Origin: Bacteroides intestinalis
GTDB taxonomy: Bacteria; Bacteroidota; Bacteroidia; Bacteroidales; Bacteroidaceae
Length of the DNA stretch: 64,000 nucleotides
Reading direction: 5' to 3'
NCBI RefSeq assembly: GCF_902364365.1
Contig: NZ_CABJDN010000003.1
Coordinates: 62,001 to 126,000 of the forward strand
In this document: in pieces, positions 2,681 to 62,905 of the stretch
Numbering within the stretch: position 1 is the first letter of the stretch
How the letters are laid out: each line of letters opens with the position of its first letter
Notes under the pieces: model-generated
What the model saw: only the letters and a program-made list of their open reading frames with translations
What the model was told of the DNA's origin: nothing
Databases searched by the model: none
Program-made: the position numbers and the translations under genes

Positions 2681-2787
2681 TCCATATCCGAATCGTATCT
2701 GAGCCGTGTCTAGTCCGTATCTGCTCCGTATCTATACACTTGGACTTGGTAGGGAGTTGGTATGGAGTTGATACGGACTTGGTAGGA
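2681..2787. repeat. opposed 11-bp-period arrays (5 + 4 units)
   Basis: Starting 12 bp after the arabinanase stop, five 11-bp units of the type TCCGTATCTGA run from 2681 to 2735. After an 8-bp junction, four units of the type AGTTGATACGG run from 2744 to 2787. The second set is roughly the reverse complement of the first (AGTTGATACGG reads CCGTATCAACT on the other strand), so the whole is an inverted repeat built from short tandem units. No ORF or known element explains it. Confidence 0.8.
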
Positions 2788-2807
2788 AGGGGGTGAATCT
2801 GAGCTCT

Positions 2808-2848
2808 AAAAACAGCCTCAAATTCCCAATCACTGAGTCTGTTTTTTT
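2808..2848 (+). terminator. rho-independent terminator after arabinanase
   Basis: AAAACAG-C-CTCA pairs with TGAG-T-CTGTTTT (11 pairs, one mismatch) around a 13-nt loop, followed by a run of T. It separates the arabinanase from the epimerase/transporter/ara operon. Confidence 0.7.
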
Positions 2849-2854
2849 ACTTTT

Positions 2855-2913
2855 ATGTTACATAACATATACAGGTGTAGTTAATACACTCAAATAAAGT
2901 GTTACTTTTACAC
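2855..2913. promoter_or_regulatory. cluster of three operator-like palindromes, candidate AraR sites
   Basis: Three palindromes lie between the terminator and the epimerase gene. They are ATGTTA-CA-TAACAT (2855-2868), GTGTA-GTTAA-TACAC (2875-2889) and GTGTTACTTTTACAC (2899-2913, one mismatch between arms). The last two are both 15 bp and share the GTGTN-N5-NACAC pattern. TACTTTTA inside the third is one base from the TAnnTTTG -7 box. The position at the head of an operon containing araR suggests autoregulated control by AraR. The AraR consensus could not be checked here. Confidence 0.5.
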
Positions 2914-2955
2914 CCAAAATCGGATAATTATCTCATTTACATTAAAAATAGAACC

Positions 2956-4095
2956 ATGAAAAACAGTTTTCTACTTGCAGGGATTGCCGCACTGATGTTA
3001 TCTGCGTGCAATAACAAGCCAGCTCAGGAGTTGACTTTGTCCGGTCTGAATCCGGTGAATTTTCAAACAGAAGTGAACAATGCCAAAACGGATCTTTACA
3101 CCTTAAAGAACAAGTCGGGCATGGAAGTGTGCATCACTAACTTCGGTGGTCGTATCGTTTCTATTATGGTTCCCGATAAAAACGGGAATATGCAGGACGT
3201 TGTTCTGGGTTTCGACAGCATTGCCGACTATGTAAACATCCCGAGTGACTTCGGCGCTTCTATCGGCCGTTATGCAAACCGCATCAATCAGGGAAGAATC
3301 GTATTAGACGGAGACACGATCCAATTACCACAAAACAACTTCGGACACTGCTTGCATGGTGGTCCTAAAGGCTGGCAATACCAAGTGTATGAAGCCAATC
3401 CGATTGATGAAACGACTCTGGAACTGACTCGTATCTCACCGAACGGTGACTCAAACTTCCCCGGCGATGTAACAGCCAAAGTTCTTTTCAAACTGACAGA
3501 TGACAACGCTATAGATATAAAGTATAGCGCTACTACAGATAAGAAAACAGTCATCAACATGACTAACCACTCTTACTTCAACTTATCCGGTAATCCTTCA
3601 AAAGCTGCAACAGATCATATCTTATATGTAAATGCAGACAATTACACTCCGGTAGACAGTACTTTCATGACCACCGGAGAAATCGTAACAGTGAAAGATA
3701 CTCCGATGGACTTTACTACTCCTAAAACAATAGGACAAGACATCACAAACTTCGACTTCGTTCAGTTGAAAAACGGAAATGGCTATGACCACAACTGGGT
3801 ACTGAATACGAATGGAGACATTGCTCAATTAGCTGCAAAACTGACTTCACCTGAAAGCGGTATCACTCTGGAAGTATATACCAACGAACCAGGTATACAA
3901 GTTTATACCGGCAACTTCCTGGACGGAACTGTAACAGGCAAAAAAGGCATTACTTATAATCAACGTGCTTCCGTATGCCTGGAAACACAACACTATCCCG
4001 ACAGTCCTAATAAGCCGGAATGGCCCAGCGTGGTATTGGAGCCGGGACAAACTTACAACAGCGAATGTATTTTCAAATTCTCAGTAGAGAAATAA
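2956..4095 (+). CDS. aldose 1-epimerase (galactose mutarotase family), lipoprotein
   Basis: 379 aa from ATG 2956; an upstream in-frame start would add 19 non-signal-like residues. A lipoprotein signal ends LMLSACN, so the protein is likely membrane-anchored in the periplasm. Family motifs are present: NFGGRIVSIMVPD, GASIGRYANRI, LHGGPKGW, the catalytic-His region TNHSYFNLSG, and ETQHYPDSPN near the C-terminus. It interconverts alpha and beta anomers of a free aldose, here plausibly L-arabinose released in the periplasm. It is the first gene of a same-strand series (epimerase, symporter, araR, araD, araA, araB) and sits behind three operator-like palindromes. Confidence 0.9.
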   Translation: MKNSFLLAGIAALMLSACNNKPAQELTLSGLNPVNFQTEVNNAKTDLYTLKNKSGMEVCITNFGGRIVSIMVPDKNGNMQDVVLGFDSIADYVNIPSDFGASIGRYANRINQGRIVLDGDTIQLPQNNFGHCLHGGPKGWQYQVYEANPIDETTLELTRISPNGDSNFPGDVTAKVLFKLTDDNAIDIKYSATTDKKTVINMTNHSYFNLSGNPSKAATDHILYVNADNYTPVDSTFMTTGEIVTVKDTPMDFTTPKTIGQDITNFDFVQLKNGNGYDHNWVLNTNGDIAQLAAKLTSPESGITLEVYTNEPGIQVYTGNFLDGTVTGKKGITYNQRASVCLETQHYPDSPNKPEWPSVVLEPGQTYNSECIFKFSVEK

Positions 4096-4120
4096 TAGTT
4101 AACTTTTAAATATTAGAATT

Positions 4121-5815
4121 GTGGAAGCATTAGATTGGATCGTAATTGGAGTCTTCGCTTTAGCTCTGATTGGTATTATTGTTTGGGTTGTCAAACAGAA
4201 ACAAAATGACTCAGCGGACTATTTTCTGGGTGGACGTGACGCTACGTGGATTGCTATTGGTGCATCTATTTTTGCATCGAACATTGGTTCGGAACACTTG
4301 ATCGGATTGGCAGGTGCCGGTGCATCCAGTGGTATGGCTATGGCACACTGGGAAATCCAGGGATGGATGATTCTCATTTTGGGATGGGTATTCGTACCGT
4401 TCTATTCAAGAAGTATGGTATATACGATGCCGGAATTCCTGGAACGTCGTTATAACCCGCAATCCCGTACTATATTGTCTGTAATCTCCTTGATCAGTTA
4501 TGTACTGACTAAGGTAGCGGTTACGGTATATGCCGGTGGTCTGGTATTCCAACAGGTATTCGGCATTGAAGAACTCTGGGGAATCGATTTCTTCTGGATT
4601 GCAGCGATCGGTCTGGTTTTGATCACTGCATTATATACAATCTTCGGTGGTATGAAATCAGTACTTTATACTTCTGTATTACAGACACCGATTTTGTTGT
4701 TAGGTTCACTGATTATCCTTGTACTCGGTTTCAGAGAACTGGGTGGATGGGACGAAATGATGAGAATTTGTGGTGCGGTGACTGTTAATGATCAGGGCAA
4801 CACCATGACGGAATTAATCCGTAGCAATAGTGATCCGAACTTCCCTTGGTTGGGAGCATTAATCGGATCAGCTATCATCGGTTTCTGGTACTGGTGTACT
4901 GACCAGTTCATCGTACAACGCGTTCTTTCAGGTAAAAACCAGAAAGAAGCACGCCGCGGTACCATCTTCGGAGCTTATCTGAAATTGTTGCCTGTATTCT
5001 TGTTCTTGATTCCGGGTATGATTGCTTTCGCACTTCATCAGAAATACCTCGGTGCAGGTGGTGAAGGTTTCTTGCCGATGCTCGCTAATGGTAGCGCCAA
5101 TGCCGATGCAGCTTTCCCGACACTGGTAGCCAAGTTGTTGCCGGCTGGTGTGAAAGGTCTGGTGGTTTGCGGTATTCTTGCAGCTTTGATGAGCTCATTG
5201 GCGTCTTTGTTCAACTCATCCGCCATGCTGTTTACAATTGACTTCTACAAACGCTTTAAACCGAAAACTTCTGAAAAGAAACTGGTAGTTATCGGTCAGA
5301 TGGCAACTGTAGTGATTGTAATTCTGGGTATTTTGTGGATACCTATCATGCGTAGCGTAGGTGATGTACTTTATACTTATCTGCAAGACGTACAGTCTGT
5401 ATTGGCACCGGGTATCGCCGCAGCCTTCCTGTTGGGTATCTGCTGGAAGCGTACTTCTGCACAAGGTGGTATGTGGGGATTGATCGCCGGTATGGTAATC
5501 GGCCTGACACGTCTAGGAGCAAAAGTATATTACAGTAATGCAGGAGATGTGGCCGGTGGTACATTCAAATATCTATTCTATGATATGAACTGGTTGTTCT
5601 TCTGCGGATGGATGTTCCTTTTCTGTATCATTGTAGTGATAGTAGTCAGTCTGGCAACGAAAGCACCGTCTGAAGAAAAGATACAAGGATTGGTATTCGG
5701 TACCTCCACCCCGGCACAATTGGCAGAGACACGCGCCAGCTGGAATCATTGGGATATTATCCATACGGTTATTATCCTGGGTATCACTGCCGCATTCTAT
5801 ATCTATTTCTGGTAA
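4121..5815 (+). CDS. SSS-family sodium/sugar symporter, probable L-arabinose importer
   Basis: 564 aa from a GTG start 25 bp after the epimerase. It is strongly hydrophobic with about 14 membrane segments and the sodium/solute symporter signature regions SIFASNIGSEHLIGLAGAGA (near residue 50) and YTMPEFLERRYNP (near 105). WYWCTDQFIVQRVLSGKN is typical of the SGLT-like branch. It imports a sugar with Na+ across the inner membrane. The substrate is inferred to be L-arabinose because the gene lies between the epimerase and araR/araDAB, the arrangement also seen in B. thetaiotaomicron. Confidence 0.9.
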   Translation: MEALDWIVIGVFALALIGIIVWVVKQKQNDSADYFLGGRDATWIAIGASIFASNIGSEHLIGLAGAGASSGMAMAHWEIQGWMILILGWVFVPFYSRSMVYTMPEFLERRYNPQSRTILSVISLISYVLTKVAVTVYAGGLVFQQVFGIEELWGIDFFWIAAIGLVLITALYTIFGGMKSVLYTSVLQTPILLLGSLIILVLGFRELGGWDEMMRICGAVTVNDQGNTMTELIRSNSDPNFPWLGALIGSAIIGFWYWCTDQFIVQRVLSGKNQKEARRGTIFGAYLKLLPVFLFLIPGMIAFALHQKYLGAGGEGFLPMLANGSANADAAFPTLVAKLLPAGVKGLVVCGILAALMSSLASLFNSSAMLFTIDFYKRFKPKTSEKKLVVIGQMATVVIVILGILWIPIMRSVGDVLYTYLQDVQSVLAPGIAAAFLLGICWKRTSAQGGMWGLIAGMVIGLTRLGAKVYYSNAGDVAGGTFKYLFYDMNWLFFCGWMFLFCIIVVIVVSLATKAPSEEKIQGLVFGTSTPAQLAETRASWNHWDIIHTVIILGITAAFYIYFW

Positions 5816-5817
5816 AA

Positions 5818-5891
5818 TAGCTACAAGCTACAGGCGACGAGTGCCATCCGGCATGATAGCGCAGCCCACTTGTAGCCTGTAGCCTGTAGCT
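5818..5891. repeat. 7-bp-period inverted repeat in symporter-araR spacer
   Basis: The left arm TAGCTACAAGCTACAGGC (5818-5835) contains two AGCTACA units. The right arm around 5875-5891 contains repeated GTAGCCT units. The arms pair over 17 bp with one mismatch. Inside is a small stem TGCC-ATCC-GGCA. In RNA this would form a long hairpin between the symporter and araR reading frames and may lower expression of downstream genes. Confidence 0.65.
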
Positions 5892-5906
5892 CGTAACTAA
5901 AAGTAT

Positions 5907-6587: not shown

Positions 6588-6590
6588 ATT

Positions 6591-7274: not shown

Positions 7275-7316
7275 ACAATCGACAGTTTAAAATTAACAAT
7301 TAAAAATAAAAGAATT

Positions 7317-10530: not shown

Positions 10531-10738
10531 AGCATAGGTACGCGGACGACGCGGATAAGGCGGACGAACGCGGATTTTCAAAGCTGCACTATGTTAAACG
10601 TAATGTATCCCATACGGAAGATAAAAAAGAAATCTGTGTTATCTGCATCATCTGCGGATGAAAAATCACTTGCATACTGTAAGGTAAATCTTAGTCCGCG
10701 TTCGTCCGCCTTATCCGCGTCGTCCGCGTACCTATGCT
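10531..10738. repeat. perfect 44-bp inverted repeat with 9-bp internal period
   Basis: The arms 10531-10574 and 10695-10738 are exact reverse complements over 44 bp, separated by 120 bp. Each arm is built from GCGGA motifs spaced 9-10 bp apart (type ACGCGGACG). The spacer holds a third short set with 9-bp period: ATCTGTGTT, ATCTGCATC, ATCTGCGGA (10632-10658). It fills most of the 378-bp gap between araB and the GH127 gene. The small open frame 10591-10779 crosses it and has no protein-like features. Confidence 0.85.
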
Positions 10739-17045: not shown

Positions 17046-17480
17046 ATGAAAACAATTGGAATTTGTTCCGACCACGCCGGATTTGAATTGAAACAATACG
17101 TCAAGGGGTGGTTGGAAACTAAAGGATGGGAATACAAAGACTTCGGAACCTATACAACGGAGAGCTGCGACTATGCAGATTTTGCGCATCCCATGGCATT
17201 GGCCGTTGAAGCCGGAGAGTGCTACCCAGGTATTGCTATCTGCGGAAGTGGCGAAGGTATCAGCATGACACTGAATAAGCATCAGGGTATTCGTGCCGCA
17301 CTTTGCTGGACGGCGGAAATTGCTCATCTGGCTCGCCAGCATAATGATGCCAACGTACTCGTCATGCCGGGACGTTTTATCAGCACAGAAGAAGCTGATA
17401 TGATTATGAGAGAATTCTTCAGTACACAGTTTGAGGGTGGACGCCATCAGAAGCGTATTGATAAAATACCGGTGAGATAA
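17046..17480 (+). CDS. rpiB: ribose-5-phosphate isomerase B
   Basis: 144 aa, a normal RpiB length. It interconverts ribose-5-phosphate and ribulose-5-phosphate in the cytoplasm. The RpiB/LacAB motifs are clear: GICSDHAGFELK at the N-terminus, and the active-site Cys in AICGSGEGISMTLNKHQGIRA, followed by HNDANVLVMPGRF. It lies 129 bp after tkt and likely shares its transcript, giving a transketolase-isomerase pair that handles pentose phosphates from arabinose. Confidence 0.95.
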   Translation: MKTIGICSDHAGFELKQYVKGWLETKGWEYKDFGTYTTESCDYADFAHPMALAVEAGECYPGIAICGSGEGISMTLNKHQGIRAALCWTAEIAHLARQHNDANVLVMPGRFISTEEADMIMREFFSTQFEGGRHQKRIDKIPVR

Positions 17481-17500
17481 TCATCCCAACTTGAAATTAC

Positions 17501-17599
17501 ACTTGTAGGTGCGGGAACTGGTACTTGCAGTAGTGTAAGGTAACGCTTGCGGATGTGTAAGGCAACACTTGCAGTAGTGAAGGCTTACACACCCGCAAG
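17501..17599. repeat. 11-bp-period array after rpiB (9 units)
   Basis: Nine consecutive 11-bp units fit without a gap from 17501 to 17599. Two half-unit types alternate, ACTTGCAGTAG and TGTAAGGCAAC, giving clear 22-bp repeats at 17523, 17545 and 17567. The last units form the arms of the terminator at 17564-17606. Confidence 0.8.
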
Positions 17600-17606
17600 T
17601 GTTTTT
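17564..17606 (+). terminator. terminator after rpiB
   Basis: AACACTTGC (17564-17572) pairs with GCAAGTGTT (17595-17603), followed by T residues. The stem is made from units of the 11-bp array. Confidence 0.6.
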
Positions 17607-24875: not shown

Positions 24876-25709
24876 ATGAAAATATCGAAAGCCAATATTC
24901 TGAAATATGTAGCAATGGGGATTATAGTTGCTTGTATTACTACTTTCTTTTTAAAGAAAGAAAAGAAGCATGGACATCCTCGTGATTATGCAGAAATAGC
25001 TGCTGAGAAAATTATCCGCGCTGCCACGGAGTATAATTCCATCAGCTTTTACGTAGATGGAGATACCTTATCCGGTTTTCACTATGAATTAATAGAAGCT
25101 TTTGCACGTGATCATGGCTGGAAAGCCGCTATCACTCCTGAAATGAGTTTCGATAAACGGCTCGAAGGACTGGCAGATGGAGAGTTTGATGTCATTGCTT
25201 ACGGCATTCTGGCTACCAGTGAATTGAAAGATTCCTTATTACTTACGACTCCGATTGTGCTGAACAAACAGATTCTCGTACAAAGAAAAGCCACTTCCCC
25301 CACTGACTCCATATTCGTTAAAAGTCAATTGGACTTGGCTGGAAAAACCTTGCACGTAGTGAAAGGATCACCATCCATCTTGCGTATCCATAATCTGGGA
25401 AACGAGATTGGAGATACCATATATATTAAGGAAATAGACAAATACGGTTCGGAACAATTGATAGCTCTTGTAGCCCATGGTGACATTGACTATGCCGTAT
25501 GTGATGAAAGCATTGCCCGTATCGTTTCAGATAGTTTTCCACAAATAGATATCAATACCGATATCAGTTTCACACAATTCTATTCCTGGGGAGTCAGCAA
25601 ACAGTCGCCTGTTTTATTAGACAGTCTTAATTCATGGCTGCAAACCTTTTGTAACAGCAAAGAATTTCAATCGATCTACCATAAATATTACCAGTCTTCC
25701 AGCAGATAA
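24876..25709 (+). CDS. solute-binding-protein-family-3-like membrane-anchored protein
   Basis: 277 aa. An N-terminal membrane segment (YVAMGIIVACITTFFL) is followed by a periplasmic domain of the type in amino-acid-binding proteins and the N-terminal part of MltF: SGFHYELIEAFARDHGWK, RLEGLADGEFDVIAYGI, and LAGKTLHVVKGSPS with a hinge near 180. There is no lytic transglycosylase domain after it. Twelve bases downstream of the porin gene, so likely cotranscribed. It may sense a small molecule or cell-wall fragment; ligand unknown. Confidence 0.75.
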   Translation: MKISKANILKYVAMGIIVACITTFFLKKEKKHGHPRDYAEIAAEKIIRAATEYNSISFYVDGDTLSGFHYELIEAFARDHGWKAAITPEMSFDKRLEGLADGEFDVIAYGILATSELKDSLLLTTPIVLNKQILVQRKATSPTDSIFVKSQLDLAGKTLHVVKGSPSILRIHNLGNEIGDTIYIKEIDKYGSEQLIALVAHGDIDYAVCDESIARIVSDSFPQIDINTDISFTQFYSWGVSKQSPVLLDSLNSWLQTFCNSKEFQSIYHKYYQSSSR

Positions 25710-25755: not shown

Positions 25756-25909
25756 CGGTAACTCCATTTACAGTCTGAAGTAAAGATCGTTACATACTGA
25801 GGTAAAGGCCGTTACATGCCAAGGTAAAAGCCGTTACAATAGGCGGTAAAGGTCGTTACATCCTACAGTAAATGCTTTTACATTATGGGGTAAATTGCAT
25901 GTAAATGCT
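25756..25909. repeat. 14-unit 11-bp-period array between convergent genes
   Basis: Fourteen 11-bp units follow without a single indel. Odd units look like AGGTAAAGGCC (25800-25810), even units like GTTACATGCCA (25811-25821), so the array is also seven 22-bp repeats. GTAA/TTAC half-sites alternate in orientation along one helix face. It fills the gap between the solute-binding gene and nadE, which converge. No spacer-repeat structure of CRISPR type and no ORF. Confidence 0.88.
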
Positions 25910-25940: not shown

Positions 25941-27866
25941 CTACAAACTATCCACTTCCCTCAACCACATTTCTGATGAAGCATCACTCGGCATACGCCA
26001 GTCACCACGTGGGCTGATAGAAATACTACCTACCTTAGGTCCGTCCGGCAAACAAGAGCGTTTGAATTGCTGATTGAAAAAACGGCGGAAGAATACTTGC
26101 AACCACTTCTTAATGGTCTCTTCATCATACATATCCTTAAACGTACGCGCTGCAAGGAAAAATATCTTGGAAGGACGGAAGCCACAACGCAGGAAATAGT
26201 ACAAGAAGAAATCATGCAATTCATACGGACCAACCAAGTCTTCCGTGATTTGTTTGATATTCCCGTTTTCATCTGCCGGAATAAGTTCCGGACTTATCGG
26301 AGTATCGACAATGTCCAGTAGCGTTGCACGAGAAGCTGCATCCATATCATTCTCAGCCACCCACTTCACCAAATGCTTGACCAATGTCTTAGGAACACTT
26401 CCATTCACACCATACATAGACATATGGTCGCCATTATAAGTTGCCCATCCCAGCGCTAATTCTGAAAGGTCACCCGTACCTATCACCATTCCCCAAGTCT
26501 GGTTGGCAATATCCATTAATATCTGTGTGCGCTCGCGAGCCTGTGCATTTTCATAGACCACATCGTGTACATTGATGTCGTGATCTATATCTTTGAAATG
26601 CTGAATACAAGCTTCTTTGATGCTGACCTCACGCACGGTAATCCCCAAAGAGTTCATTAAATCCACCGCATTCGTATGCGTACGGTCAGTGGTGCCAAAA
26701 CCCGGCATCGTCACACCGATAATGTCTTTGCGGGACCATCCCAATTTATCAAAGGTCTTTACACATACCAGCAGTGCCAAGGTAGAATCCAATCCACCGG
26801 AAATACCAACCACCGCACTTTTAGCGCACGTATGTACCAGACGTTGTGCCAGACCGGAAACCTGTATCGAAAATATTTCTTCGCAACGCTCATTCAATGC
26901 AGTTCCTTGCGGTACAAACGGATGCGGATCGAAACGACGCGTCAGGTTCAGTTCTTTACTATTCACATATTCCGTAGAAACACGTACTGCTTCCTCCGGT
27001 GCACAATGTGCCCGACAGGCAACAAATGTTGTGTTTACACGCCTTTCTATACGCAAATGTTCCACATCAATCTCACCAATGACAACTTGCTCCTCAAAAG
27101 AGAAGCGTTTACTATGTTCTATTAAGCTGCCATTTTCATAAATCAAACCGTTTCCGGCAAACACTACGTCAGTAGTGGATTCTCCGAAGCCACACGAACA
27201 GAATACATAACCGGCAATACAGCGTGCCGATTGCTGACTAATTAGAGAGCGCAAATAATTATGCTTTCCAATTCCTTCATTATCAGCAGAAAGATTAAAC
27301 AGGATCTCTGCACCTTGCAATGCCAGTGAGGAACTGGGCGGAATAGGTGCCCACAGATCTTCACAGATTTCAATGCCGAATGTCGTATCTGCCATCTCAA
27401 ACAGTAAATTGGCTCCCATGGGAACCAGTTGTCCGCAAAGGCGTACACTGGTCTCACTAACATCAACAGCAGATGTAAACCAGCGTTTCTCGTAGAATTC
27501 CTTGTAATTAGGAAGATAAGTCTTAGGTACCACACCCAGCACTTTTCCTTTCTGAATTACGACGGCTGCATTCAGCAATACACCATTCATCGCTATCGGC
27601 ATACCCAGTATAGCTATTATGTCCAGCTGTCGTGTATTACTTATAATATGTATCAGCCCCATTTCTGCTTCTTCAAGCAACAGTTGCTGCGCAAACAGAT
27701 CGCCGCATGTATACCCTGTGACACACAGTTCCGGAAAGACTATGATTTGTACGCCTTTTCCTTCAGCTATGATTATCTCCTTTTCTATTTCTCCGGCATT
27801 GAACTTGCAGTCCGCCACCTTCACACGGGGCACAGCCGCCGCTACCTTTACATATCCGTAATTCAT
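25941..27866 (-). CDS. nadE: glutamine-dependent NAD+ synthase
   Basis: 641 aa from ATG 27866. The N-terminal nitrilase-type glutaminase domain (1 to about 270) has catalytic Glu in VFPELCVTGYTCGD and Cys in GIEICEDLWAP. The C-terminal synthetase domain has the ATP-loop SGGLDSTLALLV and the later GTGDLSELALGWATYNGDHM. It makes NAD+ from deamido-NAD+, ATP and glutamine in the cytoplasm. The start is supported by a minus-strand -7 box at 27894-27901, which would place the transcript start about 20 nt upstream. A longer TTG-initiated frame would begin inside that box. Confidence 0.95.
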   Translation of the reverse strand: MNYGYVKVAAAVPRVKVADCKFNAGEIEKEIIIAEGKGVQIIVFPELCVTGYTCGDLFAQQLLLEEAEMGLIHIISNTRQLDIIAILGMPIAMNGVLLNAAVVIQKGKVLGVVPKTYLPNYKEFYEKRWFTSAVDVSETSVRLCGQLVPMGANLLFEMADTTFGIEICEDLWAPIPPSSSLALQGAEILFNLSADNEGIGKHNYLRSLISQQSARCIAGYVFCSCGFGESTTDVVFAGNGLIYENGSLIEHSKRFSFEEQVVIGEIDVEHLRIERRVNTTFVACRAHCAPEEAVRVSTEYVNSKELNLTRRFDPHPFVPQGTALNERCEEIFSIQVSGLAQRLVHTCAKSAVVGISGGLDSTLALLVCVKTFDKLGWSRKDIIGVTMPGFGTTDRTHTNAVDLMNSLGITVREVSIKEACIQHFKDIDHDINVHDVVYENAQARERTQILMDIANQTWGMVIGTGDLSELALGWATYNGDHMSMYGVNGSVPKTLVKHLVKWVAENDMDAASRATLLDIVDTPISPELIPADENGNIKQITEDLVGPYELHDFFLYYFLRCGFRPSKIFFLAARTFKDMYDEETIKKWLQVFFRRFFNQQFKRSCLPDGPKVGSISISPRGDWRMPSDASSEMWLREVDSL

Positions 27867-27893
27867 AAGGATGTCATTTATAAAATTTGACGG

Positions 27894-27901
27894 CAAAAAT
27901 A
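27894..27901 (-). promoter_or_regulatory. -7 box TATTTTTG for nadE
   Basis: Exact TAnnTTTG match on the minus strand, 28 bp upstream of the nadE ATG, with TTTGTGG about 20 bp further upstream. Confidence 0.6.
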
Positions 27902-33448: not shown

Positions 33449-33580
33449 CGTCCCGTAAGCTAAGAAAATCTGTTCCACGAGATAAAATAATCCGTCCCCT
33501 GAGATGAATTTCTTCATCTCAGGGGATGTTCTTTTTCATTTCAGGAGATGATTTCAGTTGTCTCCTGTAATCGGGTGCAC
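33449..33580. repeat. 12-unit 11-bp-period array before guanine deaminase
   Basis: Twelve 11-bp units in exact phase from 33449 to 33580. Two half-unit types alternate, for example CGTCCCCTGAG with ATGAATTTCTT and CATTTCAGGAG with ATGATTTCAGT, giving six 22-bp repeats. Internal palindromes (CCCCTGAGATGAA ... TTCATCTCAGGGG) mean a strong hairpin is possible. Confidence 0.85.
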
Positions 33581-33607
33581 AATCTTGGAGAATATAAAAA
33601 ACATTGT

Positions 33608-33615
33608 TATCTTTG
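33608..33615 (+). promoter_or_regulatory. -7 box TATCTTTG for guanine deaminase
   Basis: Exact consensus, 29 bp before the start at 33645. It supports that start over the longer upstream frame. Confidence 0.75.
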
Positions 33616-33644
33616 TCAGTAACACTAAAAATAATCATTTCATT

Positions 33645-34112
33645 ATGACCAAAGAAGAATTAATGAGAAAAGCGATCGAACTCTCTACGGAGAATGTCGC
33701 TAATGGTGGCGGCCCTTTTGGTGCTGTCATTGCCAAAGATGGAGAAATTATAGCTACCGGAACGAACCGTGTAACAGCCTCATGTGACCCTACGGCACAT
33801 GCTGAAGTCAGTGCTATTCGTGCAGCAGCCACAAAGTTAGGTACTTTCAACCTCAGCGGATGCGAAATTTATACTTCCTGCGAACCCTGTCCCATGTGCC
33901 TCGGTGCTATCTACTGGGCACGACTGGAGAGAATGTATTACGGAAACAATAAGACTGATGCCAAAAATATAGGTTTCGACGACTCTTTCATTTATGATGA
34001 GATCGCTCTAAAGCCCGCTGACCGGAAACTTCCATCGGAAGTATTATTACACAACGAAGCTATCAAAGCTTTTGAAGCATGGGCTGATAAGGAAGATAAA
34101 ATAGCCTATTAA
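33645..34112 (+). CDS. guaD: guanine deaminase (CMP/dCMP deaminase fold)
   Basis: 155 aa from ATG 33645, downstream of a -7 box; the longer open frame would start upstream of the promoter. Zinc-site motifs are HAEVSAIRAA and TSCEPCPMCLGAIYWA. The rest (GGGPFGAVIAKDGE, and YGNNKTDAKNIGFDD) matches the guanine deaminase type rather than tRNA adenosine deaminase. It converts guanine to xanthine and ammonia in the cytoplasm. A stand-alone transcription unit. Confidence 0.88.
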   Translation: MTKEELMRKAIELSTENVANGGGPFGAVIAKDGEIIATGTNRVTASCDPTAHAEVSAIRAAATKLGTFNLSGCEIYTSCEPCPMCLGAIYWARLERMYYGNNKTDAKNIGFDDSFIYDEIALKPADRKLPSEVLLHNEAIKAFEAWADKEDKIAY

Positions 34113-34118
34113 GAGCCT

Positions 34119-34184
34119 GTCGACAAGGAGTTAACTTCTTGCTAACAAACTCTTAACTTCTTGTCAACAAGAAGTTGACTCCTT
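34119..34184. repeat. 6-unit 11-bp-period array after guanine deaminase
   Basis: Six 11-bp units from 34119: GTCGACAAGGA, GTTAACTTCTT, GCTAACAAACT, CTTAACTTCTT, GTCAACAAGAA, GTTGACTCCTT. Half-units alternate in sense, so hairpins such as AACTTCTTGTCAACAAGAAGTT form. Lies between convergent genes, ahead of a terminator. Confidence 0.82.
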
Positions 34185-34216
34185 ACAAAACACTATTATT
34201 CAAGCATTAAAAAAAG

Positions 34217-43688: not shown

Positions 43689-43757
43689 AGAACGCAAATC
43701 ACACAAATTACGCAAATAGATTATTCAAATTTGTGTAATTCATGTAATTTGCGTTCT
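43689..43757. repeat. 9-bp-period inverted array between GH25 and PPi-PFK
   Basis: AGAACGCAAAT (43689-43699) and ATTTGCGTTCT (43747-43757) are perfect inverted arms. Each side is made of 9-bp units: GCAAATCAC, ACAAATTAC, GCAAATAGA on the left and ATTTGTGTA, ATTCATGTA, ATTTGCGTT on the right. Part of the same 9-bp class as the elements after araB and at 46457. Confidence 0.7.
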
Positions 43758-43786
43758 TCTTATTCACTTTTCGTTAGCTTGCTGAT

Positions 43787-46456: not shown

Positions 46457-46588
46457 TTTTAGGCGCGGATTACGCGGATTACACGGATTTTTATTACCTT
46501 GCGGCGTGGAAAGCCAGGCAAATAATCTTTGCCTGCAAGTATAACGTAGCACGTTAATCCGCGTTATACGTATAATCCGCGCCTAAAA
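46457..46588. repeat. 9-bp-period inverted repeat
   Basis: TTTTAGGCGCGGATTA (46457-46472) is the exact reverse complement of TAATCCGCGCCTAAAA (46573-46588). Further units (CGCGGATTA, ACACGGATT on the left; TTAATCCGC, TTATACGTA on the right) continue the pairing with a 9-bp step. A smaller hairpin GGCAAATAATCTTTGCC sits inside. Confidence 0.72.
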
Positions 46589-46603
46589 TATTTCAATGAA
46601 GTT

Positions 46604-57759: not shown

Positions 57760-57781
57760 ATGTTTGCTAAATAGAAATAAG

Positions 57782-57817
57782 AAGAGTGGGAAGCCAAGGT
57801 TTTCCACTCTTTTTTTA
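57782..57817 (+). terminator. terminator after the NagB/PIG-L fusion
   Basis: AAGAGTGG pairs with CCACTCTT around a 14-nt loop, followed by seven T. Confidence 0.85.
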
Positions 57818-57886
57818 CGTACTTTTGTGGAGGGACTTCACTGCAAAGAGGCACAGAGTCTCACAGAGCTTATCCGTTATGAGAAT

Positions 57887-60802
57887 ATGAGAAAAAGAAT
57901 ATTATTAGCCATTTGTTGCTGCGCTTTCGCCCTTAATGGAAAACTGGCAGCCCAAGATACCGAAGCGAATGTACAAGATCGTCTTCAATCTTTCTTTCGG
58001 GAATATACCACTACCACAGTAAATATCGGTACTTGCAAACTGGATAGCTTCCGCATAAATCATCAGAAAAAAAGATTAACGATTTATGCGGACGATAAAT
58101 TCTCCTATCAACCGTTTCGCCAGAAAACGGTAGATGCCATATACCGGTACCTGAAGCAAGTACTTCCGGGTCCCGTAAACTATTATGATATAACTGTGAT
58201 AACGGACGGACAACCCATCGAAGACCTGATTCCTAATCTTTACCGAAAAGGCAAAAAAGATAAATCCCGTTTGTACAGCGGATTAGAGTATAAAGGCGAG
58301 CCGTGGGTAACGCGCGTTTCGCGTCCTTATGAAATCAGCCGGGGATTGGAAGGTAAACATATCGCTTTATGGCAAAGTCATGGGAAGTACTTCATCAACA
58401 AAACCGGAAAATGGGGATGGCAACGCCCCCGCCTGTTCTGTACAACAGAAGATCAATTCACCCAATCCTTTATTCTTCCCTACGTCATCCCAATGTTGGA
58501 GAATGCCGGTGCCAACGTGTTTACTCCCCGAGAACGGGATACCCAGAAACAGGAAGTCATTGTGGATAATGATACTCCGCAAAATTCCCTTTATCTGGAT
58601 ATGAAAAGCCGCAAAGCCAAGTGGGAACAAACAGGACTTCCCGGTTTCGCCCAGCATAAATCAGTCTATCGGGATGATGAAAACCCATTTCTTCTCGGTA
58701 CGGCACGATTTGCTCGTACCGAGAAGAAAAAAAACAAAGCTTTTGCTGAGTGGATACCCGATATTCCTGAAACAGGAGAATACGCTGTATACGTCTCTTA
58801 TCAGACCTTGCCTAATAGTGTAAGTGATGCCAAATACATTGTGTTTCATAATGGTGGAACTACAGAATTCAAGGTAAACCAACAGATAGGTGGCGGTACA
58901 TGGGTCTACCTTGGAACCTTTACCTTTGATAAAGGAAAGAATGATTATGGTATGGTAGTACTCAGTAATGAAAGTAAGCAGAAAGGAGTGGTCTGCGCCG
59001 ATGCTGTACGTTTCGGTGGAGGTATGGGTAATATTGAACGTGGCGGAGTAACCAGTGGGCTGCCGCGTTATCTGGAAGGTGCCCGTTATTCTGCACAATG
59101 GGCAGGTATGCCTTATCCGGTCTATGGTGGACGGGAAGGCAAGGATGACATGTCCGACGACATTAATGTGCGCTCCCGTATGATCAATTATCTTTCCGGT
59201 GGTTCCATATTCAATCCCAAAGAAAAAGGGTTAGGGATACCCTTTGAAATTTCTATGGCATTGCACAGTGATGCCGGTGCCAACAAGGAAGATAAAATCA
59301 TAGGCTCACTCGGTATATACACTACTGATTTCAATAGCGGACAACTCGGAGCAGGCACCAGCCGTTATGCTTCCCGTGACTTATCCGACATCCTGCTCAC
59401 CCAACTCCAGCGGGATATCCGTTCCAACTATGCCATAGACTGGACACGTCGAAGCATGTGGGATCGTAATTACAGCGAAACACGACTTCCTGCCATTCCT
59501 TCTACTATCATTGAATTACTTTCACATCAGAACTTTGCTGATATGCGCCTCGGTCATGACCCCAATTTTAAGTTCACCGTAGGACGTTCCATTTATAAAG
59601 CTATTCTGCAATACCTTTGCAATCAGCATGGCAAAGATTATGTAGTGCAACCACTTCCCGTAAGCAACTTTTCCATCCGCTTCGGCGATAAAAAGAATAC
59701 ATTGGAACTCTCCTGGAAGGGTGAGGAGGATCAACTGGAACCTACAGCCAAACCACGTGAGTACATTGTTTATACCCGCATCGGACGCGGAGGATTTGAT
59801 AATGGCGTACGTGTCAGCAGCCCTTCTTATACAGCCAAAATAGAACCGGGTATTGTCTACTCTTTTAAAGTAACCGCAGCCAATCGGGGGGGAGAAAGTT
59901 TTCCGTCCGAGATTCTTGCTGCTTATAAAGCCAAGAAGGAAAAAGGACGTATCCTGATTGTCAACGGCTTCGACCGTATCAGTGGACCGGCAGTCATCGA
60001 TACCCCTATTGAAGCCGGATTTGATTTAACAAAAGATCCGGGCGTACCTTATCTGTATGACATTTCACTTTGCGGCGCTCAAACCGAATTCTCCCGCAAG
60101 CAAACGGGAAAGGAACTGGGACGCAGCAGTGACGAGTGGGAAGGATTAAAAATTGCCGGAAATACCTTCGACTACTCCTTCATACACGGAAAAGCAATAC
60201 AGGCAGCCGGCAATTATAGTTTTGTATCATGCAGCGATGAGGCTGTAGAAAACGGACGCGTCCCATTGGAGGTTTATAATATTGTGGATTACATTCTTGG
60301 ACTGGAGAAAGAAGATCGTCAAAGTAACCCGGCTCGTAACACATATTACAAAACCTTTTCTTCCCCTATGCAACGCGCATTGACATCATACTGTCAATCC
60401 GGTGGTAATCTGCTTATTAGCGGTTCCTACATCGGCAGCGATATGAATAACTCGCAAGGCGATCGGGAGTTTACACAGAATCTTTTGAAATACGCCTACG
60501 GACAGTCTATCACTGACAGCTATTCAGGAAATATCAGTGGGCTGGGACGTACATTCAGTATTCCCCGCCTACCCAACGAATATGCTTATCCCGTAACTGC
60601 TCCGGAATGTATTCTTCCTACAGGTGGTGCTTTCCCCGTACTAACGTATAATTCCGGCAATCAAAGTGCTGCCATTGCTTATCAAGGCAATTACCGTACC
60701 TTCGTCATGGGATTTCCTTTTGAAAGTATCGAAAAGGAAACGGATCGTAATGCTATCATGGCCTCTATCCTGCAATTCCTCACCACAGATTCACGCAAAT
60801 AA
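57887..60802 (+). CDS. secreted amidase_3-like protein with Golvesin-type and Fn3 domains
   Basis: 971 aa from ATG 57887 with signal peptide (LLAICCCAFALNGKLAAQ); the upstream open frame overlaps the preceding gene's end and is not used. It looks like the Bacteroides proteins often called xanthan lyase. The central part has the layout of N-acetylmuramoyl-L-alanine amidases: QSHGKY (first zinc His), ISMALHSDAGANK (second His) and PSTIIELLSHQNFADM (catalytic Glu). An inserted beta domain (about 290-390, GGGTWVYLGTFTFDKG) resembles a Golvesin domain, and a Fn3-like domain lies near 600-680. Probably a cell-wall amidase or carbohydrate-linked hydrolase; the lyase label is not supported. Confidence 0.75.
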   Translation: MRKRILLAICCCAFALNGKLAAQDTEANVQDRLQSFFREYTTTTVNIGTCKLDSFRINHQKKRLTIYADDKFSYQPFRQKTVDAIYRYLKQVLPGPVNYYDITVITDGQPIEDLIPNLYRKGKKDKSRLYSGLEYKGEPWVTRVSRPYEISRGLEGKHIALWQSHGKYFINKTGKWGWQRPRLFCTTEDQFTQSFILPYVIPMLENAGANVFTPRERDTQKQEVIVDNDTPQNSLYLDMKSRKAKWEQTGLPGFAQHKSVYRDDENPFLLGTARFARTEKKKNKAFAEWIPDIPETGEYAVYVSYQTLPNSVSDAKYIVFHNGGTTEFKVNQQIGGGTWVYLGTFTFDKGKNDYGMVVLSNESKQKGVVCADAVRFGGGMGNIERGGVTSGLPRYLEGARYSAQWAGMPYPVYGGREGKDDMSDDINVRSRMINYLSGGSIFNPKEKGLGIPFEISMALHSDAGANKEDKIIGSLGIYTTDFNSGQLGAGTSRYASRDLSDILLTQLQRDIRSNYAIDWTRRSMWDRNYSETRLPAIPSTIIELLSHQNFADMRLGHDPNFKFTVGRSIYKAILQYLCNQHGKDYVVQPLPVSNFSIRFGDKKNTLELSWKGEEDQLEPTAKPREYIVYTRIGRGGFDNGVRVSSPSYTAKIEPGIVYSFKVTAANRGGESFPSEILAAYKAKKEKGRILIVNGFDRISGPAVIDTPIEAGFDLTKDPGVPYLYDISLCGAQTEFSRKQTGKELGRSSDEWEGLKIAGNTFDYSFIHGKAIQAAGNYSFVSCSDEAVENGRVPLEVYNIVDYILGLEKEDRQSNPARNTYYKTFSSPMQRALTSYCQSGGNLLISGSYIGSDMNNSQGDREFTQNLLKYAYGQSITDSYSGNISGLGRTFSIPRLPNEYAYPVTAPECILPTGGAFPVLTYNSGNQSAAIAYQGNYRTFVMGFPFESIEKETDRNAIMASILQFLTTDSRK

Positions 60803-60857
60803 AAATAAAAAAGGAAGAATAATCAATGAAAGTATGCATAATCTGTGGTGAAAAACT

Positions 60858-60865
60858 TATCTTTG
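60858..60865 (+). promoter_or_regulatory. -7 box TATCTTTG for the 105-aa gene
   Basis: Exact consensus, 36 bp before the start at 60902. Confidence 0.7.
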
Positions 60866-60901
60866 CTCTCAGAGTATAAACCTTTAAAACATAAAAAAAC
60901 T

Positions 60902-61219
60902 ATGTACACTATACAAGCAAACCCCAGCGGTACCCGCAGTTTAGAAATATCCGAAGAGAATCTGGCTACTATTGAAAAATACGGACTTTTCCGCCATCTT
61001 ATTGACAGTAACGGTATTGTAGACGAGTCTGTTCTGGAAAAACTGAGACTGAATATCCGCTCCCTCATCGCATCACAAGAGGAGGACAGCAAAGATCTGC
61101 TCGACCTATGCATCGACGTGATATACCACAACAACATGAAGGCCTTCGGATTACAACAGTTGATCAAGCTCTATCTGGAATGGCTTTCCAAGCAGGAACC
61201 CATAGAAGAGGAATCATGA
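60902..61219 (+). CDS. conserved hypothetical protein, all-helical
   Basis: 105 aa from ATG 60902; the -7 box supports this start. It is mainly helical and acidic: ENLATIEKYGLFRHLIDSNG, VLEKLRLNIRSLIASQEEDS, DLLDLCIDVIYHNNMKAFGL. No membrane segment or known motif. It is 1 bp before the TusA-like gene, so the two are cotranscribed and may act together. Function unknown. Confidence 0.75.
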   Translation: MYTIQANPSGTRSLEISEENLATIEKYGLFRHLIDSNGIVDESVLEKLRLNIRSLIASQEEDSKDLLDLCIDVIYHNNMKAFGLQQLIKLYLEWLSKQEPIEEES

Positions 61220-61220
61220 A

Positions 61221-61433
61221 ATGAAAACAATCGACACCTGTGGTCAAAAACTTTACAGTCCTCTCATCCCCGCAGTCAAAGCTATGTGCGAAACCGCGTC
61301 GGGTGAGAAGTTGGAAATTATTATGAATAACGCTGAGGCTTTCCAGGATTTGAAGGAATACCTCGCGGAACAGAGCATTGGTTTCCGAGAAATATACGAC
61401 GGAGAACGGATGATCTTGCAGTTCAAGATGTAA
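61221..61433 (+). CDS. TusA/SirA-like small protein lacking the catalytic Cys
   Basis: 70 aa. The length and pattern (IDTCGQKLYSPLIPAVKAM, then GEKLEIIMNNAEAFQDLKEY and SIGFREI near the end) match TusA/SirA proteins, which carry persulfide sulfur on the Cys of a CPxP motif. Here that position reads YSPL, so sulfur transfer by that route is unlikely; a Cys at residue 7 could substitute but its place is different. Paired with the 105-aa gene. Function unknown. Confidence 0.6.
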   Translation: MKTIDTCGQKLYSPLIPAVKAMCETASGEKLEIIMNNAEAFQDLKEYLAEQSIGFREIYDGERMILQFKM

Positions 61434-61436
61434 ATA

Positions 61437-61467
61437 GAATAGGTACGCTTAATTCGCGTACCTATTC
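61437..61467. terminator. bidirectional palindromic terminator overlapping the kinase stop
   Basis: GAATAGGTACGC (61437-61448) pairs perfectly with GCGTACCTATTC (61456-61467) around TTAATTC. The kinase stop codon (61449-61451 on the minus strand) is in the loop, so the right arm encodes its last residues. Confidence 0.8.
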
Positions 61468-62639
61468 ATATTCAAAGGCACTTCAAACCAGAATGTAGAC
61501 CCTTTGTTTACCTCAGATTCCAAACCCGCCTTGCCTCCCAGACTCCGAATGATAGTTTGCGAAAGCGTCAGCCCTAAACCTGTTCCCGGCACTTCCCGAT
61601 CCAACTTCTTAAAGCTGGTAAATATTTCTTGTTGCTCTTCTTCCGGTATCCCAATCCCGGTGTCGGACACATAAAAATGAACGGTATCCGTTTCCTTCAT
61701 GTAGCAACCAAAGCGTATTTCACCAGATTTGGTAAACTTAATCGCATTATGAATCAGATTTGCCATTACCTGAATGATGCGCTGATGTTCAGAATACATG
61801 ATAATAGGTTGCAAGGATGCTTCACAGATCAAATCAACTGAAGGGTTATTGAACAGTTTCACTTGAAACATGCCTTCCAGTTCTCTCAACAAGTCATTGG
61901 CATCAAACTCCGAATACTCGAAACTCAAAGTCCCGGCCTCTATCTGCGAAAGATCAAAGATATCATTTATCAAACGCAGCAAACGCTCATTGTTCTCTGA
62001 AATAATATCCATATACAGTTTCTTCTCCTCTTCATCGGAAGCAGTAGCTATTAATCCGGAAAAGCCAACAATCGCATTCAGTGGTGTACGGACTTCATGA
62101 CTTATATTCGCAATAAAAGTAGATTTCAACCTCTCTGCAGATATCGAGTTCTTTCTCTCTATGTTCAGCAACCTCTGAACATTCTGCAGTTCCGTTACAT
62201 CATAAACCGTCAATACCATATGCTCTTCTCCTTCAATAACAACATAAGCACCCGATACTGAAACATCACAGGGGATCACTTTGTCTTCTTCTTCATTCAG
62301 AAGATTCATAGAAGCATTTACTTTTTTGAAACTCTCTTTCTTCTGAAAAGCTCTTCCAATAGCTGCGCGGATACCACAAAGTTTACACTGCTGGTGCATG
62401 CCACACTCACCGGCTTCGGCAGCATTCCGGCAATGCAACAAGTCACCGACCCTTTTCATCACACCAGTCTCAGGAGCAGGAAGCTTATTCAAGGAGTAGT
62501 AATTAGTGTCGCAGACAATAAAATCTTTATCAATCAGTAAAAAATAGGCATTAATATTTTGTAAAACCAAAGTTGCCCGGTCAAGTTTGCTTTGTAGCGT
62601 ATCTTTTGAACCTGATTCTTCATACGGAGATGTTTCCAT
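61449..62639 (-). CDS. cytoplasmic PAS-domain sensor histidine kinase with a four-Cys motif
   Basis: 396 aa from ATG 62639, chosen because a minus-strand -7 box lies 40 bp upstream; a longer open frame exists. A PAS-like domain (about 20-150) contains Cys70, Cys79, Cys85 and Cys88 (HCRNAAEAGEC, then HQQCKLCG), a pattern that could bind a metal or Fe-S cluster. The kinase core has His181 in NISHEVRTPLNA, the N box MANLIHNAIKFTKSG, and DTGIGIP and GTGLGLTLSQ. No membrane helix, so it senses an internal signal. No response regulator beside it. Confidence 0.88.
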   Translation of the reverse strand: METSPYEESGSKDTLQSKLDRATLVLQNINAYFLLIDKDFIVCDTNYYSLNKLPAPETGVMKRVGDLLHCRNAAEAGECGMHQQCKLCGIRAAIGRAFQKKESFKKVNASMNLLNEEEDKVIPCDVSVSGAYVVIEGEEHMVLTVYDVTELQNVQRLLNIERKNSISAERLKSTFIANISHEVRTPLNAIVGFSGLIATASDEEEKKLYMDIISENNERLLRLINDIFDLSQIEAGTLSFEYSEFDANDLLRELEGMFQVKLFNNPSVDLICEASLQPIIMYSEHQRIIQVMANLIHNAIKFTKSGEIRFGCYMKETDTVHFYVSDTGIGIPEEEQQEIFTSFKKLDREVPGTGLGLTLSQTIIRSLGGKAGLESEVNKGSTFWFEVPLNMNRYAN

Positions 62640-62678
62640 AATTGATTGATTTATATTTTGATTTGTGCCATTAGCGTA

Positions 62679-62686
62679 CAAAAATA
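62679..62686 (-). promoter_or_regulatory. -7 box TATTTTTG for the PAS kinase
   Basis: Exact TAnnTTTG on the minus strand, 40 bp before the chosen ATG at 62639. It lies inside the longer open frame, which argues against starts further upstream. Confidence 0.6.
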
Positions 62687-62817
62687 TAAAATATCTGGAT
62701 AAACCAGACGATTCTTTGGCATTTTTATTTGTGCCCATCCCATACTTTGCCAAGTTACCAGTGAAGGCTAAGGCGCTTTTCCGTAAGGACTAAAGACTAA
62801 GACAACGAAAATCTATT

Positions 62818-62905
62818 CGTCCCCTTATAAGGAACATTGCGTCCCCTTATAGAGGAACGCAATGTTCCTTATAAGGGGACGAAATGTTCCCCATGGTGGA
62901 ACGCA
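62818..62905. repeat. 8-unit 11-bp-period array between divergent genes
   Basis: Eight 11-bp units in phase. CGTCCCCTTAT occurs exactly twice (62818 and 62840), alternating with AAGGAACATTG and AGAGGAACGCA. The following units (ATGTTCCTTAT, AAGGGGACGAA) are inverted versions, so strong hairpins are possible. The 447-bp gap up to 63087 has no gene; beyond the array to the -7 box I see only AT-rich sequence. Confidence 0.85.

What the first reader, a model, noticed from the sequence alone, without database searches (positions are those of the whole stretch)
2681..62905. Six spacer arrays share an exact 11-bp period but not sequence
Arrays at 2681-2787, 17501-17599, 25756-25909, 33449-33580, 34119-34184 and 62818-62905 are made of 11-bp units in strict phase, most alternating two half-unit types (22 bp). 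The units differ between arrays (TCCGTATCTGA, ACTTGCAGTAG, AGGTAAAGGCC, CGTCCCCTGAG and others), so this is not one dispersed repeat. A shared period with unrelated sequence suggests a common process that makes them locally, or a factor reading one face of the helix once per turn. I know of no described Bacteroides element of this kind.
Basis: seen in the sequence. Interest (0 to 1): 0.82.

Follow-up and report, generated by a model that had tools for sequence, protein, structure and literature searches.

The report
Intergenic palindromic repeats, fixed 22-bp period
Gaps between genes in this gut bacterium hold short DNA repeats whose sequences differ widely but whose spacing stays at about 22 base pairs, a pattern that recurs across its bacterial family and was scarce in the sampled relatives outside it.

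Summary
In detail: all six arrays are at the stated places, and lag 22 gives 7 segments in the window's spacers against 0.00 in shuffles. Only array 1 has a true 11-bp period; the other five repeat a 22-bp imperfect palindrome.

In stretches from 19 other genomes of the same family, 19 of 24 arrays with periods 12-33 had periods 21-23; in the order and class stretches 4 of 23 did, none of them 22.

'Unrelated sequence' is only partly right. Array 1 belongs to a dispersed family with 31, 79 and 67 pattern matches in three sister genomes and 0-4 in five others. Motif sharing between unlinked loci exceeds nulls, modestly once that family is removed (35 pairs against 0-5).

Arrays favour gene 3' flanks and keep palindromic columns best. 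Tests for an array-wide hairpin, 11-bp GC phasing, intrinsic terminators and RAYT transposases were negative; a wobble test for RNA pairing is weakly positive.

Best reading: REP/BIME-like dispersed repeats of Bacteroidaceae made of dyad sites two helical turns apart, probably read as DNA by proteins. Reader and mover are unknown. P. gingivalis BrickBuilt (23 nt) is the nearest described element found.

The parts
2676..2793 (.). Array 1, 11-bp period, family F1: left arm of TCCGTA-type units, right arm of inverted TACGGA-type units, about 5 + 5. Begins 7 bp after the stop of the GH43 gene (755-2668), before an aldose epimerase gene (2899-4095).
   Evidence: 31/79/67 F1 pattern matches in G001/G002/G004; longer in B. 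oleiciplenus by gaps of 33, 11 and 33 (net +76 between flanks)
17493..17601 (.). Array 2, 22-bp palindromic units (ACTTGCAGTAG / TGTAAGGTAAC), 12 bp after the stop of the RpiB-like gene (17046-17480).
   Evidence: ortholog 98% identical in B. cellulosilyticus, diverged in B. stercorirosoris; family members at G001:C57:32202 and 106539
25757..25894 (.). Array 3, 22-bp palindromic units (GTAA..TTAC), between convergent genes (24876-25709 + and NAD synthase 25941-27896 -).
   Evidence: same family in B. stercorirosoris and a sibling (L010, L011); different 22-bp arrays in the same spacer in B. cellulosilyticus (GAAACT..AGTTTC) and B. muris (TGCAGT..ACTGCA)
   Evidence: present in B. stercorirosoris, absent in B. 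cellulosilyticus; one T-tailed hairpin inside, 33493-33528
34116..34188 (.). Array 5, 22-bp palindromic units (GTTAACTTCTTG / CAACAAGAAG), 3 bp after the deaminase stop (33558-34112), between convergent genes.
   Evidence: orthologs in B. stercorirosoris and B. oleiciplenus, absent in B. cellulosilyticus; family member at G001:C57:304553
62816..62906 (.). Array 6, 22-bp palindromic units (CGTCCCCTTAT / AAGGAACATTG), on the 5' side of a histidine kinase ORF (61449-62753 -); the only one of the six not beside a 3' end by my ORF calls.
   Evidence: no family partner among the 171 arrays compared

Best explanation
These are dispersed intergenic repeats of the family Bacteroidaceae (GTDB sense). 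Each element is a tandem run of dyad-symmetric sites at a pitch of about 22 bp (in one family, single half-sites every 11 bp in two opposed arms). Shown: the pitch, the palindromy of most arrays, dispersal of at least two motif families, the bias to gene 3' flanks, size change in whole units at the best-aligned loci, and scarcity in the sampled relatives outside the family. Inferred: the dyads are read mainly as double-stranded DNA by sequence-specific dimeric proteins that bind side by side two helical turns apart, each motif family having its own reader; the pitch is kept because a shift would put neighbours on different faces. Units are gained and lost by recombination or slippage, and elements are copied to new spacers by an unidentified route, as REP/BIME sequences are. 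They persist mostly downstream of stop codons, where they do least harm.
For: Period: of 95 arrays (periods 12-33) from the window, 76 nadE-locus records and sister-genome stretches, 55 are 22, 18 are 23 and 7 are 21; in an independent sample 19 of 24 are 21-23. Palindromy: 32 of 43 base-22 and 13 of 18 base-23 arrays beat the column-permuted null at p<=0.02, against 2 of 16 for 7-bp arrays; 10 of 17 at p<=0.05 in the independent sample. Palindromic columns are more conserved (0.843 against 0.704; difference 0.139, null 0.087 sd 0.007; 116 arrays). Dispersal: F1; F3, 28 palindromes at 13 B. cellulosilyticus loci, 12 of these with several palindromes, 22, 44 or 66 bp apart; similar pairs at unlinked loci above nulls. 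Unit change: nadE 3' spacer 144 against 56 bp (-88 = 4 x 22), an F1 locus 163 against 196 bp (+33); alignment gaps of 33, 11 and 33 at array 1 in B. oleiciplenus. Location: per 10 kb of spacer 7.7 convergent, 4.7 co-directional, 2.7 divergent; co-directional arrays nearer the upstream stop in 29 of 43 (expected 21.3 sd 3.2). Lineage: lag 22 gives 16 segments against 0.2 in 20 family stretches, 1 against 0.8 in 30 order stretches, 1 against 0 in 10 class stretches, 0 in 100 kb of E. coli.
Against: No reader protein or mover is known. Most of the motif sharing comes from F1: without it 35 unlinked pairs remain within the clade (null 0-5) and 32 between species (null 1-6), and 83 of 171 arrays had no partner. 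Apparent loops vary 0-12, so a uniform binding geometry is not shown. Sense-strand mismatches lean to G.T in co-directional spacers (155 against 115; 177 against 132 with slid control 1.03, log difference 0.27, CI 0.06-0.50), which suggests some RNA pairing; the stricter test gave 15 against 16. 11 of 43 base-22 arrays, and 7 of 17 in the independent sample, are not clearly palindromic. Some size differences are not clean multiples (array 2 against B. stercorirosoris -23, G001:C57:151283 against B. oleiciplenus -156; both include flank), and array 1 differs by net +76, not 77. One strong period-21 palindromic array lies in an order stretch (L189:6820-7051, score 52.5).
Confidence: 0.4

Rival explanations
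1. RNA: the arrays are runs of small hairpins in mRNA 3' ends that protect or terminate transcripts or bind an RNA-binding protein; 11 bp per turn of A-form RNA sets the pitch. (Rivals here are not all mutually exclusive.)
For: 3' location; weak G.T excess on the sense strand (177 against 132); several arrays fold well.
Against: The strict test shows no wobble bias (15 against 16); convergent and divergent spacers show none (64 against 60, 31 against 29); no array-wide hairpin in the 21-23-bp class (2 of 60 at p<=0.05 by unit permutation); apparent loops vary 0-12; 13 of 116 arrays lie in divergent spacers; terminator-like hairpins are not enriched (13 of 73 against 124 of 519 co-directional spacers).
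Confidence: 0.22
2. Mutational by-product: fold-back or template-switch replication and slippage tend to make and extend palindromic tandems with a step near two helical turns; no function.
For: Many unrelated motifs with one pitch; 83 of 171 arrays without a partner; unit gain and loss; some arrays nearly perfect, so young (L032, L067, L071); no positional conservation beyond orientation and spacer length (73 dissimilar ortholog pairs, 92 in all, against 76-94 expected in matched nulls and 50 sd 16 unmatched).
Against: F1 and F3 at unlinked loci; palindromic columns kept better than the rest; near restriction to one family; slippage alone does not choose 22 over 18 or 26.
Confidence: 0.2
3. 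Non-autonomous transposons: each family is a MITE carrying a minisatellite, like BrickBuilt of P. gingivalis, moved by an IS transposase.
For: F3 has four in-phase sites in 18 of 22 loci viewed (up to 3 mismatches) plus flanks with weak inverted similarity; F1 has two opposed arms; whole-array presence and absence between sister species.
Against: No target duplication or sharp ends seen at the four sites aligned; in the full B. cellulosilyticus listing of F1 (31 matches) no opposed pair lies 0.5-4 kb apart as around a transposase gene; Y1_Tnp/RAYT not found in B. cellulosilyticus; F3 flanks look like further 22-bp units, not short TIRs. Other transposase families were not searched.
Confidence: 0.2
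4. DNA gyrase or other wrapping sites: helically phased bendable DNA at gene ends, where positive supercoils collect.
For: F1 layout (two opposed 11-bp phased arms, about 75-190 bp) recalls the 130-bp symmetric E. coli gyrase motif with 10.75-bp GC phasing (PMC6379681, passages); 3' bias; BIME-2 binds gyrase (PMC2817692, passage).
Against: 22-bp arrays show no excess 11-bp GC harmonic (mean p 0.50, Fisher 0.64, 55 arrays; among 6 period-21 arrays 2 had p<0.1); wrapping does not need conserved 6-bp cores; near restriction to one family although gyrase is widespread.
Confidence: 0.07

Closest known systems
BrickBuilt, P. gingivalis MITE with a 23-nt minisatellite (PMC4596501; abstract, part 1 of 9 and passages seen)
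   Same: Same order; dispersed intergenic element; tandem unit of 23 nt with conserved and variable positions; variable unit number; 19 copies in strain ATCC 33277.
   Different: One family, with short terminal inverted repeats like those of IS5-family elements; direct repeats reported, palindromy not described in what I saw; here several motif families, period centred on 22, no terminal repeat shown.
REP / BIME sequences and REPINs (PMC2817692 passages; PMC3116915 and PMC3733652 search listing only)
   Same: Extragenic palindromes, in BIMEs regularly spaced in alternating orientation, dispersed; gene 3' flanks (recalled).
   Different: REP units are 20-40 bp (PMC3733652, start of abstract) and linked to RAYT transposases; no Y1_Tnp match in B. 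cellulosilyticus; here unrelated families share one period.
Plasmid iterons and the ParR/parC centromere of R1 (recalled, from no call)
   Same: Arrays of protein sites at 11- or 22-bp pitch; parC has two clusters of five 11-bp repeats, like array 1.
   Different: Those are single loci next to rep or par genes; these are many chromosomal loci, and none of 10 scanned neighbours of the window's arrays is such a gene.
E. coli gyrase motif (PMC6379681, passages)
   Same: Symmetric, helically phased flanks; activity near gene ends.
   Different: Degenerate GC phasing, not sequence cores; the 22-bp class lacks 11-bp GC phasing.

Membership tests
REP/BIME with RAYT | extragenic short palindromes, tandem or alternating, dispersed | tested here: met
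REP/BIME with RAYT | associated Y1 (RAYT) transposase in the genome | tested here: not met
   PF01797: 0 matches in B. cellulosilyticus and 3 others of 8 genomes; 1-2 in the other 4
REP/BIME with RAYT | GTAG or CGTC tag beside the palindrome | not tested
   feature known from the title of PMC3733652; no systematic test made
MITE | many dispersed short copies | tested here: met
   F1; F3; not shown for most other groups
MITE | terminal inverted repeats and target duplications | tested here: inconclusive
   F3 flanks show weak inverted 22-bp phased similarity; no target duplication at the four sites aligned
MITE | ends shared with an autonomous IS | not tested
   only Y1_Tnp was searched
Structured RNA family | match to a known covariance model | tested here: not met
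   Rfam 15, whole window, 0 matches at gathering score
Structured RNA element | pairing kept by wobble on the transcribed strand | tested here: inconclusive
   15 against 16; 155 against 115; 177 against 132 with control 1.03
Intrinsic terminator | GC-rich hairpin followed by a T run | tested here: not met
   co-directional array spacers with any 13 of 73, overlapping the array 4 of 73, without arrays 124 of 519; convergent 19 of 40 against 56 of 136. The finder is strict: it missed terminator-like hairpins visible downstream of arrays 1 and 5 in the alignments
Gyrase/wrapping site | helically phased GC content | tested here: not met
   second-harmonic test null for 55 arrays of 22 bp; F1 not tested
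Iteron / ParR-type centromere | array next to its own Rep/ParR gene | tested here: inconclusive
   10 neighbours of the window's arrays: none is Rep or ParR by Pfam, one has no match; other loci and the second neighbour of array 6 not scanned

The most novel reading that the evidence does not exclude
Bacteroidaceae have a two-turn ruler: one lineage-specific protein or enzyme that does not care about base sequence but about dyads 22 bp apart, and so creates or maintains arrays from any palindrome; motif families are then secondary, spread by copying. This would be a sequence-independent satellite system of a bacterial chromosome.
Probability: 0.2. Interest if true: 0.88.

Novelty: new variant of a known kind. 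Interest (0 to 1): 0.7.

Why it matters
In the sampled loci 99 of 1167 gene 3' ends carry a 21-23-bp array, yet my searches of openly licensed papers showed no description in Bacteroides. A fixed pitch with changing sequence points to a structural constraint in abundant gut bacteria. It gives a directly testable question: which protein, if any, sits on these arrays, and why two turns. Unit-number differences between sister species suggest use as strain markers, which I did not test.

Tried and rejected
Own-genome scan: no genome is held for the window, so sister species were used.

Array-wide hairpin as the general rule: single folds looked striking, but permuting whole units kept the score (2 of 60 at p<=0.05, mean p 0.61); rejected for the 21-23-bp class. 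The 9-bp arrays and array 1 were not in that test.

RAYT as mover: not found in B. cellulosilyticus. Gyrase/curvature: GC harmonic null. Terminators: not enriched.

Positional hot spots: the nadE spacer and the spacer of L237 hold unrelated 22-23-bp arrays in several species, but over 137 orthogroups this is no more than expected once orientation is matched (73 dissimilar pairs against 76; unmatched 50 sd 16; 78 against 107 sd 20).

Hidden 22-bp periodicity in spacers after masking arrays: weak at best (z 1.1-1.8 in three sets, 0.0 in order+class).

Similarity searches: no match to array 1 in E. coli genomes nor to array 3 in plasmids.

Mended on recount: the similar-pair counts (751 within the clade, 61 between species) included orthologous copies and one locus fetched twice; at unlinked loci they are 620 and 56, and 35 and 32 without F1. 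The flank criterion over-merges (it joins family 3 although its members at G001:C57:304553 and at the ortholog of array 5 are different places), so these are lower counts. I lowered the best explanation from 0.42 to 0.40 and raised the by-product rival from 0.18 to 0.20 for this.

Rows dropped: L006, L073, L010 and L012 were left out of pooled counts where longer stretches of the same genomes were used; one search also left out L001, L002 and L007, these and L011. One search used 10 of the 22 F3 loci (5 orthologs removed after choosing 15). Spacers with N, under 60 bp, or over 1000-1500 bp in some calls were skipped. Genes are simple long-ORF calls, so some spacer types are wrong.
Full report
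WHAT IS THERE. A local autocorrelation scan of the window's spacers found lag-22 segments 7 times against 0.00 in shuffles, and lag 44 3 times against 0.05. Array 1 is a direct 11-bp array in two opposed arms. Arrays 2-6 are 22-bp arrays whose unit is an imperfect palindrome, so they read as alternating inverted 11-bp halves. Five of six begin 3-47 bp after a stop codon; array 6 lies on the 5' side of a histidine kinase ORF. The window is closest to Bacteroides cellulosilyticus and B. timonensis (nadE protein 95%; DNA 98% over 5.9 kb of B. cellulosilyticus); the species is my inference.

HOW GENERAL. In 80 records around the nadE gene (606 spacers, 128,893 bp) lag 22 occurs 45 times against 1.0 in shuffles, lag 44 31 against 0, lag 23 18 against 0.7, lag 21 13 against 0.3. 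A separate class with period 7 also appears (31 against 0). In 400 kb of B. cellulosilyticus lag 22 occurs 15 times against 0.3 and lag 23 never. When each array gets its best period between 12 and 33, with multiples of shorter periods removed, 55 of 95 are 22, 18 are 23, 7 are 21, and no other period exceeds 4. Twenty 20-kb stretches from 19 other family genomes (genomes drawn by the tool, positions chosen by me without looking) gave 19 of 24 arrays with period 21-23, 15 of them 22. Thirty stretches from 21 genomes drawn from the order and 10 from the class gave 4 of 23 with period 21-23 and none with 22; 100 kb of E. coli gave no array (counts per lag). One of the four, in L189, is long and palindromic with period 21. 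The order and class draws may include family members; names of these genomes are not given. So the fixed pitch looks like a trait of Bacteroidaceae in the GTDB sense, with rare possible exceptions.

ANATOMY. Units are palindromic beyond what the period gives: 32 of 43 base-22 arrays and 13 of 18 base-23 arrays at p<=0.02, against 3 of 7 for base 21, 2 of 16 for 7-bp and 2 of 10 for 11-bp arrays; 10 of 17 at p<=0.05 in the independent sample. Palindromic columns are better conserved than the others. Array-wide symmetry is not required: swapping whole units does not lower the best fold-back score. Half-site spacing inside the unit differs between arrays, while the total stays near 22. GC content has no 11-bp phase inside 22-bp arrays.

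FAMILIES. Clustering 171 arrays gave 17 groups of two or more and 83 singletons; one group is a 7-bp class. By a conservative flank test 9 of the 17 groups span at least two unlinked loci. Similar pairs at unlinked loci number 620 within the B. cellulosilyticus clade against 2-11 in 10 column-permuted nulls, but 35 against 0-5 without F1; between species 56 against 2-9, and 32 against 1-6 without F1. F1 (TACGGA every 11 bp, left arm inverted) contains array 1 and has 31, 79 and 67 pattern matches in B. cellulosilyticus, B. timonensis and B. oleiciplenus, 4 in B. stercorirosoris, 1 in B. fluxus, 0 in three others; the reversed control pattern had none. Twenty fetched B. oleiciplenus loci show arms of 2-9 units; arm-to-arm distances are 14-15, 25 or 36 bp in 17 of 20 and 42 in 3 (my reading of the positions), and 14 of 20 centres contain CTATA or TATAG. 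F3 (AAGATGNCATCTT) has 28 exact palindromes at 13 B. cellulosilyticus loci; 12 of the 13 have several, 22, 44 or 66 bp apart, and one is a lone site. With up to 3 mismatches, 18 of 22 loci viewed show four sites in phase. Around F3 the 22-bp phase goes on for two more units with another motif (lag-22 match 0.36-0.41 against 0.20-0.33 at the other lags 15-30 over the first two blocks; 20 flanks of 10 of the 22 loci).

EVOLUTION. Where arrays align well, size differences are whole units: -88 at the nadE spacer of B. timonensis against B. cellulosilyticus and +33 at an F1 locus of B. oleiciplenus; array 1 in B. oleiciplenus has gaps of 33, 11 and 33 and differs by net +76 between flanks. Other differences that include flank are not clean multiples (array 2 against B. 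stercorirosoris -23; G001:C57:151283 -156). Whole arrays are present or absent between sister species (array 4 present in the window and B. stercorirosoris, absent in B. cellulosilyticus). The same spacer can hold unrelated arrays: nadE and the L237 locus, where B. cellulosilyticus has F3, B. oleiciplenus a different 22/44-bp array and B. muris a 23-bp one. Over all orthologs this recurrence is not above matched expectation, so I do not claim conserved positions.

WHERE. Arrays are densest between convergent genes and rarest between divergent ones (7.7, 4.7, 2.7 per 10 kb), and in co-directional spacers they lie nearer the upstream stop (29 of 43, expected 21.3 sd 3.2).

DNA OR RNA. If RNA hairpins were selected, mismatches on the sense strand should be G.T rather than A.C. 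The strict test gives 15 against 16. Larger, looser tests give 155 against 115 and 177 against 132 with 1.03 in slid controls, a small but significant excess; convergent spacers give 64 against 60. I read this as mainly DNA-level constraint with a possible RNA part. Terminator-like hairpins are not enriched in array spacers, though the finder is strict.

MECHANISM. Shown: pitch, palindromy of most arrays, core conservation, dispersal of F1 and F3, unit-wise change at the best-aligned loci, 3' bias, near restriction to one family. Inferred: dimeric proteins bind the dyads two turns apart; several readers exist, one per motif family; copying to new spacers occurs by an unknown route. RAYT was not found in B. 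cellulosilyticus. A MITE route like that proposed for BrickBuilt in P. gingivalis (23-nt unit, 19 copies, IS5-like ends; PMC4596501, abstract, part 1 of 9 and passages) is open.

NOVELTY. The listings of my searches showed no description in Bacteroides (openly licensed PMC papers only; titles and abstract starts of listed papers seen, 20 of 55, 10 of 11, 10 of 10). Two B. thetaiotaomicron transcriptome papers came up and were not read. REP/BIME and BrickBuilt are the nearest kinds. One fixed pitch shared by unrelated motif families across a bacterial family is, as far as I saw, undescribed; I therefore call it a new variant of a known kind.

Noticed in passing
43692-43764, 46464-46600 and 10540-10729: 9-bp period repeats (ACGCAAATC, CGCGGATTA, ACGCGGACG types). 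The first two fold back as one large hairpin with direct repeats in the arms, a different design from the 22-bp arrays; the third was only seen. The 46464 spacer holds an F1 array instead in B. oleiciplenus.
   Followed up: partly
5869-5897 in the window; L034:21780, L039:5142, L057:19748: 7-bp tandem arrays are a second abundant class in these genomes (31 lag-7 segments against 0 in shuffles), mostly not palindromic (2 of 16); one recurring group reads AATCACT.
   Followed up: no
flanks of F3 elements, e.g. L229, L230, L232: A second motif (..AAAGG...TTAATG) continues the 22-bp phase outside the palindromes, possibly into the ends of neighbouring genes; the last point was not tested.
   Followed up: partly
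L183:948, 10223, 15356 and L178:1514, 16219, 17979: Single 20-kb stretches of other family genomes hold three arrays of similar motif each, so some genomes may be denser than the window's clade.
   Followed up: no
L021:2761-2855, L015:2656-2731, L025:9797-9861: Direct 11-bp arrays without palindromic units in some Bacteroides MAGs, pyrimidine-rich on one strand; the one in L025 is weakly similar to F1.
   Followed up: no
L189:6820-7051: A 230-bp palindromic array of period 21 in a genome drawn from the order, possibly an independent case of the same design outside the family or an unrecognised family member.
   Followed up: no
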